From Wolbachia endosymbiont of Ctenocephalides felis wCfeF (GTDB lineage: Bacteria > Pseudomonadota > Alphaproteobacteria > Rickettsiales > Anaplasmataceae): 64,000 nucleotides of DNA. A model generated the notes under the pieces. That model worked only from the letters and a program-made list of their open reading frames with translations. It did not search any database and was not told the origin of the DNA. This document shows positions 24,097 through 59,425 of this stretch, piece by piece. Position 1 is the first letter of the stretch. The number at the start of each line of letters is the position of its first letter. The stretch covers positions 1,387,417 to 1,451,416 of the forward strand of contig CP116767.1 of the NCBI GenBank assembly GCA_028571325.1. The letters run 5' to 3'. Position numbers and translations under genes: made by a program.

Positions 24097-24374
24097 AAAA
24101 CTACTTGACAACCTTCGCCGGTCCCCTTACAATAGAGCTGTGGGTGTTTTAGGCCTAAAATTTATCTTTAATCTTGTATTAAGTGACAAAAGCACAGTAT
24201 AAAACAAGGCGTGTTATGTTTTATTTTTGCAGCATGGACACTGCATGTCTTTATAATTTTTTGTCTACATTAGCTGAACCTCGCTTACTAAGCGGTGTAA
24301 GAGAGAACCGGACGCCAAGTTTTTGAGAGAACAGTAAACAACTCACATTGCGGGGTTTCTTTTGTCTTTTTTTT
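24097..24374 (+). repeat. Promoter-bearing intergenic element, copy A
   Basis: It starts with TTGACA (24105-24110), a 17-base spacer and TACAAT (24128-24133). Downstream are a TGCAG/CTGCA hairpin, a CGCTTA-C-TAAGCG hairpin, the ACGCC motif and the end CGGGGTTTCTTTTG plus a T-run (to 24374). It has no ORF of note. It is the most diverged of the five copies; compare copies at 24418, 30391, 49740 and 58975. Confidence 0.65.
24105..24133 (+). promoter_or_regulatory. Consensus-like promoter of element A
   Basis: TTGACA, 17 bases, TACAAT. Confidence 0.6.
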
Positions 24375-24417
24375 AAATTAGTTAAAATCTTAACCAATCT
24401 TATTTTTTTCACAAAAA

Positions 24418-24672
24418 AATTGCTTGACAAGTTTCGACATTTCCCTTATCATAAGATTATGGGTATTTACAACCCCAAGGTCAGCTACTTGTCAAGCGTA
24501 TAGAGCATTAACGCCAAGTTATTAAAATAGATATTGACCAGGGTTTCTTTTGCTTTTTTTCTCGCTTGGTAAATTTCTTAAGCATAAAGGTTATACCAAT
24601 TTTCGTTATCAAACAAGATACATCATAAATTTGCTAATCGCAGGGAAACTTTTTAATTTGTCCTATTACCCT
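24418..24672 (+). repeat. Promoter-bearing intergenic element, copy B (short)
   Basis: Promoter TTGACA (24424-24429), 17-base spacer, TATCAT (24447-24452). Only one module follows (ATTAACGCCAAG, then GGGTTTCTTTTGC and a T-run), then the shared tail TTCGTTATCAAACAAGATAC and GGGAAACTTTTTAATT, ending with TCCTATTACC. Compared with copies C and D an internal part is missing. Confidence 0.65.
24424..24452 (+). promoter_or_regulatory. Consensus-like promoter of element B
   Basis: TTGACA, 17 bases, TATCAT. Confidence 0.6.
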
Positions 24673-24725
24673 CTAGAAGATCTCTTAAACTATTAACCCA
24701 GCATCACCTCCCTTAACAGCACCAC

Positions 24726-24875
24726 TTATTTGATCAGCTTTAATATCGTAAGGAACGCAGAACCGACAGCTTGACGAAAAGAGCTAAAAATAGGGATATT
24801 TTTCCTAACTCTATTTTTTATAGCAAACCACTGATGCTCAATTTTATTAATTCATTTGGGAACAATGGAGAATTC
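24726..24875 (-). pseudogene. Fragment of an IS630-type transposase C-terminus
   Basis: On the minus strand bases 24848-24726 read NKIEHQWFAIKNRVRKNIPI, then FSSFRQAVGSAFL and a TAA stop. Upstream, one base out of frame, LPLFPNEL precedes it. Together they restore LPxxPNELNKIEHQW, the last DDE-motif region (with the catalytic Glu) of IS630-family transposases. The rest of the insertion sequence is gone. It lies between element B and bioB. Confidence 0.6.
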
Positions 24876-24945
24876 ATGATAATTTTATATTGCAAATAGA
24901 ATGAGCTTTTTATTATTAGAATCATTTTATTTGCAAAAAGTATTC

Positions 24946-25898
24946 TCAATTTTCTCTGAGTAGAGCCAGTTTTTGCAATCCCAACCTTTGGAATAAATGA
25001 TTATCTTGTTCAGGTATTGGATTTTGAGCTGTAAGTAGCTTTTCACCGTAAAAAATTGAATTGGCGCCAGCAAGGAAACATAATGCTTGCAGTTCATCCG
25101 ACATTTTCTCTCGCCCAGCTGATAAGCGGATGTAGGACTTTGGCATAATAATTCTGGCTATTGCGATAGTACGAACAAAATCAAACGGATCAACATCAGC
25201 CACATTCTCAAGAGGAGTTCCGGGAATTTTTATCAGCATATTAATTGGTACTGATTCTGGAGGATCGTTCAAATTCGCAAGAAGAACTAACATTTTTATT
25301 CGATCTTCATTAGTCTCACCCATGCCAAGAATTCCGCCACAACAGACCTTAATGCCAGATGCGCGTACACATTCCAATGTCTCCAAGCGATCCTGAAAAG
25401 TACGTGTAGTTATGACCTTATTATAATATTCTTCGGATGTATCAATATTATGGTTATAAAAATCTAAGCCGGCTTCCTTTAGCATATTAGCTTGATAATC
25501 TTTAACAACCCAAGAGTCACACACGTTTCAAGACCCAACTTCTTCACTTCCCTAATCATTTCGCAAACAACTTTTAAATCTTGATCACGTGGACCACGCC
25601 AAGCTGCTCCCATACAGAAACGAGTACTTCCAGCCTCTTTTGCACATTTTGCTGCTTCAATTACCTCGGCAATTTCTAACAAAGGCTTTTTCTGCAAACC
25701 AGTGTTATAGTGTGCTGATTGGGGACAGTAGGAACAATTTTCCGGGCAGCTACCTGTTTTAATACTCAAAAGCGTACTAATTTGCACTTCACTAGGATTA
25801 AACTGCTTTCTATGTTCTGTTTGTGCTATATAAATTAGCTCAGGAAACGGAAGATTAAAGATTTGGTCTGCCTTGGCAAAAGTCCATTCTTCTGTCAT
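24946..25898 (-). pseudogene. bioB: Biotin synthase, one frameshift
   Basis: The radical-SAM enzyme that inserts sulfur into dethiobiotin, the last step of biotin synthesis. The start is ATG 25898 with AAGGAG upstream. The CxxxCxxC cluster motif is present (Cys51, 55, 58 in SCPENCSYCPQ). Near 25501-25503 the frame shifts: one frame reads CVTLGLLKIIKLIC and stops, the other picks up KDYQANMLKEAGLDFYNHN. Restoring one A in an AAA run gives the expected LLKDYQAN. The downstream part (TTRTFQDRLETLECV, RLSAGREKMSDELQ) is well conserved. It is transcribed divergently from bioF. Unless the indel is an error or is rescued by slippage, biotin synthesis stops at dethiobiotin. Confidence 0.85.
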
Positions 25899-57533: not shown

Positions 57534-57620
57534 AATATTTTTTTTATTATGCTAAATAACTCTTTTACTATATGTAATGTTTATTTAGAATGGATGTATG
57601 TTATTAAATTTGGGTAGATT

Positions 57621-58133
57621 ATGTCTATTTTATCAATACTCTTGTTCATCAGTCTTTCTTTACTTAACAATTCAAATAAATTGATGATATGCGCTGCCCT
57701 AGTTACGGGAGCTGCTCTAGCTGTAAATTCAATGGTTAAGTTCTACGGCAAAAGAGAAGCTATATGTAGCTTAATAACGTGCACAGTGTTATGTTGTGTT
57801 CTTAAATGGCAAAATTTCAGCCCAATGATACTAATTTCATACACCGCAATTTTAGTATCCCTTTTTTCAAGTATCATTATTTTTGAAAAATTAAAGTCTA
57901 AGTTTGACTTTCATATAACAAATTTCATTGCTTTAATTATAGCATCAGTAGTTGACAGTACTGTTGTATATGTCGGGTTACTACACAAATTCCCCGCAGG
58001 CAAATGCTTCTCGATATACATTAGAGATTTAGCTTTCAAATTTTCTTATATATCAATATTAAGTATCTGCTTACTAGTAGCAACACGTTTATTCCGCTGG
58101 GCAAAGAAGAAGCATATTAAGCTTTTCGCGTAA
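57621..58133 (+). CDS. Integral membrane protein, YhhQ/VUT-like
   Basis: 170 residues with about five or six membrane helices. AVNSMVKFYGKREA and ASVVDSTVVYVGLLHKF recall the VUT/YhhQ family, whose members import queuosine precursors. The family usually has ~220 residues, so this one is short and the match is by eye only. It stands alone 88 bp after purL, in the same direction. Confidence 0.5.
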   Translation: MSILSILLFISLSLLNNSNKLMICAALVTGAALAVNSMVKFYGKREAICSLITCTVLCCVLKWQNFSPMILISYTAILVSLFSSIIIFEKLKSKFDFHITNFIALIIASVVDSTVVYVGLLHKFPAGKCFSIYIRDLAFKFSYISILSICLLVATRLFRWAKKKHIKLFA

Positions 58134-58270
58134 CCTGTTTTCGTGACCCGCGTTTCTCAAGCCACATCGCCAGTAAACGTCGGCTAAGCTTAAATCTGCT
58201 ACAGTAACTTCAAAATATATTGACTTTATGTACAATATTAGCTTTAAACCAGTAAAGTAGGTTTCAACGC

Positions 58271-58921
58271 ATGCGCTTTCTTTGTTCCAACTATGTTCTT
58301 TTTTTGTCTTTATGTTGTCTTTCATTTTTTCTGTTACCTTCAATAGAGGCCCAAACAAACGATACGTCAGCAGCGGAATTTGCCCCCACACCACAAAGGA
58401 AAAAAAAGGTAGTTGAGCAGCTGAGTACCGATGTTATGAAACAAACAGCACAACCGAGGCAAATCATAGAAATGCAAGAAGAAGTCAATATCGACGAAAG
58501 CAGCCCAATTCCAAAAAGAAAAAACAGTGTAGGTACAAAGCTGGAAGATGCAGTAAAGCCTAGAGAAACAGAGAATGAAATAAAAAGCGAAAAGAGTTTT
58601 GAGAGCAAAAAGAACGAGTTAGTTGTAGCAGAAATTATTAACTCCATAAGAGAAAAGCTAGCAAAATGCTGGAGTATTCCTGAAAGCGTAGCTTACAAAG
58701 AAAATTTTAGTATAAAAATCAATCTACTATTATCCAATCAAAGTGAAATAATTATGGCTGATGTAGCAGACAGTAGCTCCTACAAAAATAATCCACTTTT
58801 CAGATCAATAGCAGATAGTGCAATGCGTGCAGCATATAAATGTAGCCCAATAACTGGCTTGCCTGCCAAGCATTACCACATTTGGCGTGAAGTGACACTA
58901 GACTTTATTCTAAATGGGTAA
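58271..58921 (+). CDS. Exported TolA/TonB-C-like protein
   Basis: 216 residues. An N-terminal signal sequence (NYVLFLSLCCLSFFLLPSIE) is followed by a charged, low-complexity middle with two similar APTPQRKKK / SPIPKRKNS stretches, then a C-terminal domain: EKLAKCWSIPESV, FSIKINLLLSN and SAMRAAYKCSPITGLP, like the C-terminal domain of TolA. It probably spans the periplasm as part of a Tol-Pal-type system; partners are not adjacent. Confidence 0.65.
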   Translation: MRFLCSNYVLFLSLCCLSFFLLPSIEAQTNDTSAAEFAPTPQRKKKVVEQLSTDVMKQTAQPRQIIEMQEEVNIDESSPIPKRKNSVGTKLEDAVKPRETENEIKSEKSFESKKNELVVAEIINSIREKLAKCWSIPESVAYKENFSIKINLLLSNQSEIIMADVADSSSYKNNPLFRSIADSAMRAAYKCSPITGLPAKHYHIWREVTLDFILNG

Positions 58922-58974
58922 AATCTTAGAACAGACCGTTCACATGCAATCCAAGTAGCTCATAGAAATAGAGC

Positions 58975-59425
58975 TAAAAAAACTACTTGACAACCTTCGC
59001 CGTTACCCTTATAATGAGACTGAAGCTATTTGTTTATCTTCGCAATCTGTGCAGGTTAATGACAAAAAACTTAGGGTATTTGGCGTCTCATGTTTAAATT
59101 TTTGCACTATGTGCACCTTACGTCTTTTTAAAACTTCTGGTTTTTACCTATACAAGCTGAAACGCGCTTATAAGTCGTTTAAGACAGTATAGAACGTCAA
59201 ATAGACAAGGGAGAATTTGAATACTAGCTGCCTCAGAGTTTTTTTGCCTTTTTTCCTGCTTAGTAAATTTCTTAACGTTTACAGTTTTGGTTATTTGCAT
59301 TTTAAAATAGCTGAATCGTAGCGCTAAGAATAAAAACGCCGATATTTGAGGTACATATAAATAATTAGCCACCGACCGGGGCTCCTTTTGCTTTTTTCTC
59401 CATTTTGTAAATTTCTTAAATATTT
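58975..59425 (+). repeat. Promoter-bearing intergenic element, copy E
   Basis: Promoter TTGACA (58987-58992), 17 bases, TATAAT (59010-59015): a full consensus, 30 or more bases identical to copy D. GACTGAAG is followed by CTTCGCAATC, so the first hairpin is weaker than in D. TGCAC-TAT-GTGCA, GCGCTTATAAGTCG and two modules (ACGTC variant, then ACGCCG) follow, with T-rich ends. The shared tail of B, C and D is missing. It lies in the 787-bp gap before purA. Confidence 0.7.
58987..59015 (+). promoter_or_regulatory. Full-consensus sigma-70 promoter of element E
   Basis: TTGACA, 17 bases, TATAAT. Confidence 0.75.

What the first reader, a model, noticed from the sequence alone, without database searches (positions are those of the whole stretch)
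24097..59425. Five-copy intergenic element family, each led by a consensus promoter: candidate multicopy non-coding RNA
Copies at 24097, 24418, 30391, 49740 and 58975 all begin with TTGACA, exactly 17 bases, then TATAAT, TACAAT or TATCAT. Such near-perfect promoters are rare in this genome window, and no gene follows closely. Downstream, hairpins stay paired while bases change: GCAG/CTGC in A against GCAC/GTGC in D; CGCTTA-C-TAAGCG in A against GCGCTTATAAGTCG in C, D and E. ACGCC and CGGGG-plus-T-rich ends recur twice in C, D and E, so the element is itself a tandem of two modules. All copies sit in gaps between genes. They may be small RNA genes, a mobile promoter element, or dead copies of one.
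Basis: partly seen in the sequence, partly recalled or inferred. Interest (0 to 1): 0.85.

Follow-up and report, generated by a model that had tools for sequence, protein, structure and literature searches.

The report
Wolbachia's hundred-copy promoter-driven RNA family
This Wolbachia genome holds 124 related DNA units between its genes, nearly all with a strong promoter-like start and one conserved folding pattern, so they are likely RNA genes whose bodies are probably copied over one another while the promoters stay in place.

Summary
The five promoters belong to four copies of a family with 124 copies in this genome, located by RNA structure; 121 of 124 keep an exact TTGACA. The predicted RNA has a five-helix fold; on an alignment in which 31 of 32 rows were not used to build the model, 93% of 885 base-pair cells pair and 9 of 30 pairs change on both sides. 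The family is in 29 of 41 Wolbachia genomes and in 0 of 167 other genomes sampled from the order. It contains the published marker ARM and the VNTR-141 primer site. Fourteen copies sit after the same gene here and in a relative (G012): their bodies agree 80% on average, against 96% with another copy in the same genome. Promoter spacers are strain-specific; bodies are mostly shared across strains, and body-type linkage rises at the predicted start of transcription and ends at the last T-run. Best reading: a multicopy structured-RNA gene family whose bodies are overwritten at fixed promoter-bearing sites. Transcription was not tested and function is unknown.

The parts
24105..24133 (+). Copy A, promoter 1: TTGACA, 17 nt, TACAAT
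24141..24374 (+). Copy A (subfamily 1, 28 copies), predicted RNA 1 to the first T-run; RNA-model domain 24200-24328
   Evidence: 94.2 bits
24424..24452 (+). Copy A, promoter 2 (site 24418 of the finding): TTGACA, 17 nt, TATCAT, leading module 2
24460..24560 (+). Copy A, predicted RNA 2 (module 2) to the second T-run
   Evidence: ends inferred
30403..30431 (+). Copy C, promoter: TTGACA, 17 nt, TATCAT
30439..30804 (+). Copy C (subfamily 5, 7 copies), predicted RNA; first T-run ends near 30672, second near 30804; RNA-model domain 30490-30627
   Evidence: 141.8 bits
49754..49782 (+). Copy D, promoter: TTGACA, 17 nt, TATAAT
49790..50174 (+). Copy D (subfamily 0, 31 copies), predicted RNA; first T-run ends near 50021, second near 50174; RNA-model domain 49840-49977; after recO, as is the G012 copy L225
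   Evidence: (137.1 bits)
58987..59015 (+). Copy E, promoter: TTGACA, 17 nt, TATAAT
59023..59397 (+). Copy E (subfamily 2, 27 copies), predicted RNA; first T-run ends near 59254, second near 59397; RNA-model domain 59074-59210
   Evidence: 141.3 bits

Best explanation
The five promoters belong to four of 124 dispersed intergenic copies that are likely RNA genes: each is predicted to be transcribed from its own sigma-70-type promoter into a structured RNA of about 230 nt (about 385 nt if transcription runs on to the second T-run), and the transcribed parts are likely overwritten by one another at old chromosomal sites while the promoters stay behind. Shown by sequence: copy number, promoter hexamers and spacing, the covarying fold, presence in 29 of 41 Wolbachia genomes, homology with ARM loci and with the VNTR-141 primer site, shared positions with differing bodies in a second strain, and loss of body-type linkage near the predicted transcript start and right after the final T-run. 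Inferred: transcription, transcript ends, overwriting by gene conversion between copies, and passage of some bodies between strains. Most likely mode of action, not tested: a trans-acting small RNA whose dose comes from many interchangeable loci.
For: 124 RNA-model copies in this genome; 121 of 124 with exact TTGACA. G012 copies found by RNA model: 28 of 36 TTGACA, 5 more TTGACG, 33 of 36 best matches with 17 nt. Fold: 89.8% of 440 cells paired against 33-50% when slid; 93.0% of 885 against 23-44%, covariation score reached by 0 of 500 shuffles, number of two-sided pairs (9 of 30) by 3 of 500. 29 of 41 Wolbachia genomes, 0 of 167 others. ARM loci L165 and L166, not in the model, score 115 bits. 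Fourteen shared loci with G012: mean flank identity 0.878, body 0.799, best own paralog 0.963; the own paralog is at least as close in 14 of 14. Spacer identity 0.70 within own, 0.60 within G012, 0.39 between; bodies of subtypes 0 and 5 0.975 and 0.967 alike between the two genomes. Edges of the unit.
Against: No transcript was seen. Folding energy does not exceed shuffles (five sequences, z 0.05-0.95), and RNAalifold on the first alignment found only 3 pairs. No intrinsic-terminator hairpin was found at the T-runs, so the 3' ends are uncertain. sequences were mostly fetched with the model, and helix P4 was re-registered after they were seen; 22 of 500 shuffles reach the count of pair types. 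Subtype-3 bodies are only 0.892 alike between genomes (0.954 within own). Twelve of 41 Wolbachia genomes have no match, so the RNA is not essential to the genus.
Confidence: 0.7

Rival explanations
1. RNA-templated overwriting: the transcript, or a cDNA of it made by a resident reverse transcriptase, is the donor that replaces bodies at other promoter-bearing sites, which is why the exchanged unit begins near the predicted start of transcription and ends at the T-run.
For: Association of bases with body subfamily is 0.42-0.56 at most variable sites of the 3' spacer, the -10 and the next 5 nt, and 0.67-0.94 at the strongly variable sites from 8 nt after the -10 on (114 copies); it falls to 0.11-0.30 right after the last T-run (110 copies). 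In G012 similar promoter types stand before body types 0, 3, 5 and 6; subtypes 0 and 5 cross strains without their promoters.
Against: Partial linkage of the -10 region (about 0.5) is more than a donor that starts at +1 predicts. Four of 115 copies are mosaics with breaks inside the body, which DNA exchange explains. Spacers are also alike within each strain, so DNA-level exchange acts too. No reverse transcriptase was looked for.
Confidence: 0.2
2. A non-autonomous mobile DNA element (MITE-like or mobile promoter) that recently spread and carries its promoter with it.
For: High copy number, 5' edge shared by copies with different flanks, T-rich edge at the 3' end.
Against: No terminal inverted repeat beyond a 6-nt A-run (tested on copy D only); fourteen copies share position and orientation with a relative but carry other bodies; spacers vary while the -35 does not. 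Target-site duplications and empty sites were not tested.
Confidence: 0.15
3. A family of short membrane-peptide genes.
For: Copy D holds a 38-codon frame from ATG with a hydrophobic stretch, and related frames open in some other copies.
Against: No one reading frame stays open in all the copies scored; predicted lengths run from 5 to 55 codons and copy C is shifted in frame (in which several minus-strand loci could not be scored). The conserved pattern is base pairing.
Confidence: 0.06
4. Promoters or leader regions that drive the next gene downstream.
For: Strong promoters; in 50 of 113 copies with a downstream frame it points the same way.
Against: In 63 of 113 it points the other way; the median distance from position 430 of the element to the next frame is 163 nt, and two T-runs intervene.
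Confidence: 0.05

Closest known systems
ARM, A-supergroup repeat motif of Wolbachia (Schneider et al. 2014, PMC4029913; parts 1 and 2 of 3 of the text read)
   Same: Same family: exact ARM primer loci carry the same promoter arrangement and RNA domain; dispersed, intergenic, multicopy (24 in wMel by that paper).
   Different: In the parts read the paper treats it as a PCR target found only in supergroup A and mentions no promoter, RNA or fold. This genome has none of the exact 315-bp ARM amplicons but 124 relatives.
VNTR-141 and VNTR-105 typing loci of Wolbachia (PMC3287509, passages read)
   Same: The VNTR-141 reverse primer lies exactly in module 2 of a family copy in G033 (L172); VNTR-105 lies in the gap that holds ARM.
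   Different: The published loci are tandem arrays; arrays of 141 or 105 bp were not looked for here.
Wolbachia small RNAs ncrwmel01 and ncrwmel02 (PMC4349823, passages and one section read)
   Same: Intergenic RNAs with their own start; the tRNA-Arg-4/WD1131 gap, where ARM lies, is among the 13 gaps tested by 5' RACE there.
   Different: Those two have published transcripts; the ARM gap did not amplify (one strand tested). Their sequences were not compared with this family.
Multicopy bacterial sRNA genes and rRNA operons kept alike by gene conversion (recalled; reviews seen only as search listings)
   Same: Several near-equal promoter-led copies of one RNA that evolve in concert.
   Different: Copy number here is far higher, and promoter and body evolve as separate units.

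Membership tests
ARM (A-supergroup repeat motif) | 315-bp product between the two ARM primers | tested here: not met
   0 exact in this genome; 5 of 41 genus genomes have it
ARM (A-supergroup repeat motif) | Homologous sequence at ARM loci | tested here: met
   L164-L167 match model R1; L165 and L166 were not used in the model
ARM (A-supergroup repeat motif) | Confined to supergroup A | tested here: inconclusive
Structured RNA family | Covarying helices | tested here: met
Structured RNA family | Transcript | not testable with these tools
   no read data
Described Rfam family | Match to one of 4227 models | tested here: not met
   none at gathering scores in any copy; best on copy D 16.5 bits, E 0.7, gathering 100
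Multigene family in concerted evolution | Paralogs within a genome more alike than positional orthologs | tested here: met
   14 of 14 loci at least as close to an own paralog; means 0.963 and 0.799
MITE-like mobile element | Terminal inverted repeats | tested here: not met
   copy D only: best match a 6-nt A-run
MITE-like mobile element | Target-site duplication and empty sites | not tested
   no empty site was sought
VNTR-141 | Primer site in the repeat locus | tested here: met
   exact in L172, one mismatch in L197, none with up to one mismatch in the other loci held

The most novel reading that the evidence does not exclude
A bacterial RNA family that spreads through its own transcript: RNA bodies, from transcription start to terminator, are written over other bodies at more than a hundred standing promoter sites, and even between strains, by an RNA- or cDNA-templated exchange. 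That would be a prokaryotic retro-cassette that leaves its promoters behind and uses those of its targets.
Probability: 0.2. Interest if true: 0.95.

Novelty: new variant of a known kind. Interest (0 to 1): 0.78.

Why it matters
If right, many Wolbachia genomes devote their strongest-looking promoters to one overlooked RNA. Its near-identical copies would largely drop out of the 2025 start-site study, which kept only uniquely mapping reads. The reading joins the ARM/VNTR typing markers with Wolbachia small RNAs, gives a covariance model for counting the family in any strain, and offers a test case for how dispersed bacterial RNA genes are kept alike. Copy number runs from 0 to 124 across the genomes searched, so a link to host phenotype can be tested with genomes already sequenced.

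Tried and rejected
Fold stability as evidence: rejected, z 0.05-0.95 in five sequences. RNAalifold on the first alignment: only 3 pairs, because MAFFT shifted the 3' strand of P1 in some rows; I then aligned the domain alone, left the shifted rows out of the model set (15 of 23 rows kept), and counted pairs for a hand-drawn structure. P4 was first drawn in another register and changed after A4 was seen. Rfam: no match. Intrinsic terminators: none at the T-runs; the hits at 24228-24245 and 49869-49881 are hairpins inside copies A and D. Coding: no shared frame among the copies scored. An apparent opposite orientation at several G012 loci was my error: loci from the RNA-model search are stored on the plus strand; corrected, so the U/D labels and the minus-strand G012 rows are not used. 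The biotin operon as a unit carried by the element: at four of the other genomes with the operon (G029, G030, G011, G018) no copy lay in the 10-kb stretches taken, so it is kept as a remark. wMel transcribed gaps beside ispH and sucB, which also lie beside copies here: only named genes were compared, and this may be chance; not used. Rows left out: 28 of 144 promoter hits (second promoters) were left out of the 116-copy set; one search used 114 of 116; one search used 110 of those 114 (no clear T-run anchor in 4); one search used 27 of 36 G012 copies (typed ones); one search left out the shared position 73836/L208 because the distances to the gene differ (122 and 364 nt). Literature searches for this element as RNA or as a converted family (listings, apart from the papers named) showed none; that is a statement about those searches and this library only.
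Full report
THE OBSERVATION. They are the only sites of that quality in the window; 60 mononucleotide shuffles gave a mean of 0.75 and a maximum of 3. The sites at 24105 and 24424 belong to one element, so the window holds four copies (A, C, D, E) with five promoters.

SIZE OF THE FAMILY. A promoter pattern with up to 3 mismatches finds 138 sites in the genome (77 plus, 61 minus) and none with the reversed pattern. 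Copies fall into subfamilies of 31, 28, 27, 21 and 7 and two singles (28 further hits are second promoters). Of these, 115 are in the promoter-located set of 116; the other nine were fetched or already held. In all, 121 of 124 have exact TTGACA. The exceptions are a full body whose -35 region is replaced (1381774), a fragment (466530) and a truncated copy with TTAACA (161383). In 116 copies examined, 21 overlap open frames of 70-113 codons and none a longer one.

STRUCTURE. The domain has a closing helix P1 (TTGGCGT with ACGCCAA, extended to 9 pairs), a small hairpin P2, a second long helix P3 (TGTCTT with AAGACA) that encloses another hairpin, and P4. On a MAFFT alignment of 15 sequences 89.8% of 440 cells pair, against 33-50% with slid partners; the covariation score is 0.176 against 0.116 in shuffles (0 of 500 reach it), and one P1 pair occurs as AU, UA, GU, CG and UG. 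On a second alignment of 32 sequences (30 distinct, 31 not in the model) 93.0% of 885 cells pair, against 23-44% slid; 9 of 30 pairs change on both sides (3 of 500 shuffles reach that), and the score is reached by 0 of 500. Most of these sequences were fetched with the model, which leans towards the fold, and P4 was re-registered after I saw them. Folding energy shows nothing beyond shuffles.

PROMOTER. Within the four largest subfamilies (107 copies) the -35 hexamer does not vary, the 17-nt spacer does (mean diversity 0.14-0.33) and the body little. Those copies were collected by promoter, so the fairer test is G012, whose 36 copies were found by RNA model. There 28 of 36 have TTGACA and 5 more TTGACG, and 33 of 36 best matches have exactly 17 nt (one of these, L232, looks spurious; the scoring rule slightly favours 17), with spacers such as GTTTCAAAAAGTCTGCT that share little with those here. 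Hexamers and spacing kept while the spacer turns over is what a working promoter leaves.

DISTRIBUTION. The model hits 29 of 41 Wolbachia genomes (80 candidates scored per genome) and none of 167 other genomes of the order (18 candidates scored per genome, stricter filters). Twelve Wolbachia genomes have none. The exact ARM primer pair occurs in 5 of 41 genomes; ARM loci L165 and L166, not in the model, score 115 bits. The VNTR-141 reverse primer lies exactly in module 2 of a copy in G033 (L172). So ARM, and at least one edge of VNTR-141, are parts of this family.

OVERWRITING. Fourteen copies here and in G012 follow the same upstream gene in the same orientation, with flank homology running to 20-105 nt from the promoter here. 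Mean flank identity is 0.878, mean body identity at the shared locus 0.799, and mean best match to another copy in this genome 0.963; the own paralog is at least as close in 14 of 14, and the body is less alike than the flank in 11 of 14. At 13 loci the bodies are 0.68-0.87 alike, at one (1274410/L211) 0.99; there the flank shown is identical up to the -35 and the spacer differs. Between the genomes subtype-0 bodies are 0.975 alike and subtype-5 bodies 0.967 (within own 0.963 and 0.953) while their spacers are 0.44 and 0.33 alike; subtype 3 does not fit as well (0.892 against 0.954 within own). Spacers are 0.70 alike within own, 0.60 within G012 and 0.39 between. In G012 similar promoter types stand before body types 0, 3, 5 and 6; spacer likeness is 0.65 for the same and 0.59 for different body type, reached by 137 of 2000 permutations (27 of 36 copies).

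WHERE THE UNIT BEGINS AND ENDS. Association of each base with body subfamily (Cramer's V, 114 copies) is 0.10-0.30 upstream of the -35 where bases vary, 0.18-0.39 in the first half of the spacer, 0.22-0.56 in its second half, about 0.5 at the two variable -10 positions and 0.42-0.51 in the next 5 nt. At the strongly variable sites from 8 nt after the -10, where transcription should start, it is 0.67-0.94. At the other end (110 copies) it is mostly above 0.5 up to the shared CAGGGCTTCTTTTGCTTTTTTT, which is itself nearly invariant, and 0.11-0.30 from the end of the T-run on. The body is high by construction; the sharp edges are not. Either only exchanges that leave promoter and RNA whole survive, or the exchange uses the RNA as template. 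Four of 115 copies are mosaics with breaks inside the body, which plain gene conversion explains. I rank DNA gene conversion first and RNA-templated exchange second.

EXPRESSION. Not tested here. In the 2015 wMel study (PMC4349823; passages and one section read) the tRNA-Arg-4/WD1131 gap is one of 13 gaps tried by 5' RACE; ARM and VNTR-105 lie between WD1129 and WD1131 (PMC4029913, PMC3287509). It did not amplify, with primers for one strand only. The 2025 start-site study (PMC12558409; passages and one section read) kept only uniquely mapping reads and says that this limits information from repeat elements.

FUNCTION. Many equal, dispersed, promoter-led copies of a structured RNA most simply mean dosage of a trans-acting RNA, with copies kept alike by conversion. 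Absence from 12 genomes and the wide range of copy number speak against an essential role and leave room for a selfish one. Whether the RNA serves the cell or its own spread is open.

Noticed in passing
24105-24672 and 30403-30911: The biotin operon (bioA confirmed and a bioB piece matched; the other genes by eye) lies between copies A and C in direct orientation. In four other genomes with the operon no copy lies in the roughly 10-kb stretches taken.
   Followed up: partly
24946-25898: bioB appears as two overlapping open frames (24946-25524 and 25479-25898); the second matches only the first 134 of 307 positions of the BioB model, so the gene looks broken.
   Followed up: no
24586-24672, 30825-30911, 50195-50281: Another repeat (ATAAAGGTTATAC...TTTCGTTATCAAACAAGATACAT...) follows several copies directly after the T-run region.
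   Followed up: no
52047-52192: The Rfam match to WsnRNA46 (RF02625) lies inside the open frame 51672-54452 and overlaps a dispersed GGATCCCAGTG-type palindromic repeat (52143-52173), so that sRNA family may partly reflect a repeat.
   Followed up: no
25550-25902: The Rfam match to Ricks_sRNA10 (RF02574) covers the bioB coding piece, so that family may model a coding sequence.
   Followed up: no
19407-20267; downstream flanks of copies 204467-, 254972+, 474292-, 502174-, 630272-, 880552-: The window holds an Rpn-family recombination-promoting nuclease/putative transposase gene; the downstream flanks of six copies match one G012 flank and look by eye like the same gene family.
   Followed up: partly
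L167 1477-1614, L172 1344-1484, window 49993-50130: Module 2 gives weak matches to the module-1 RNA model (25.4, 25.4 and 17.5 bits), a hint that it is an old duplicate of module 1.
   Followed up: no
copies 524080-, 968268+, 1362420+, 653041+: The same short internal deletion (TTTTCAAGCT in place of TTTTTACCTATACAAGCT or close) recurs in copies of different subfamilies.
   Followed up: no
18506-18937 and 19007-19354: Two neighbouring open frames look by eye like pieces of one replicative DNA helicase gene.
   Followed up: no
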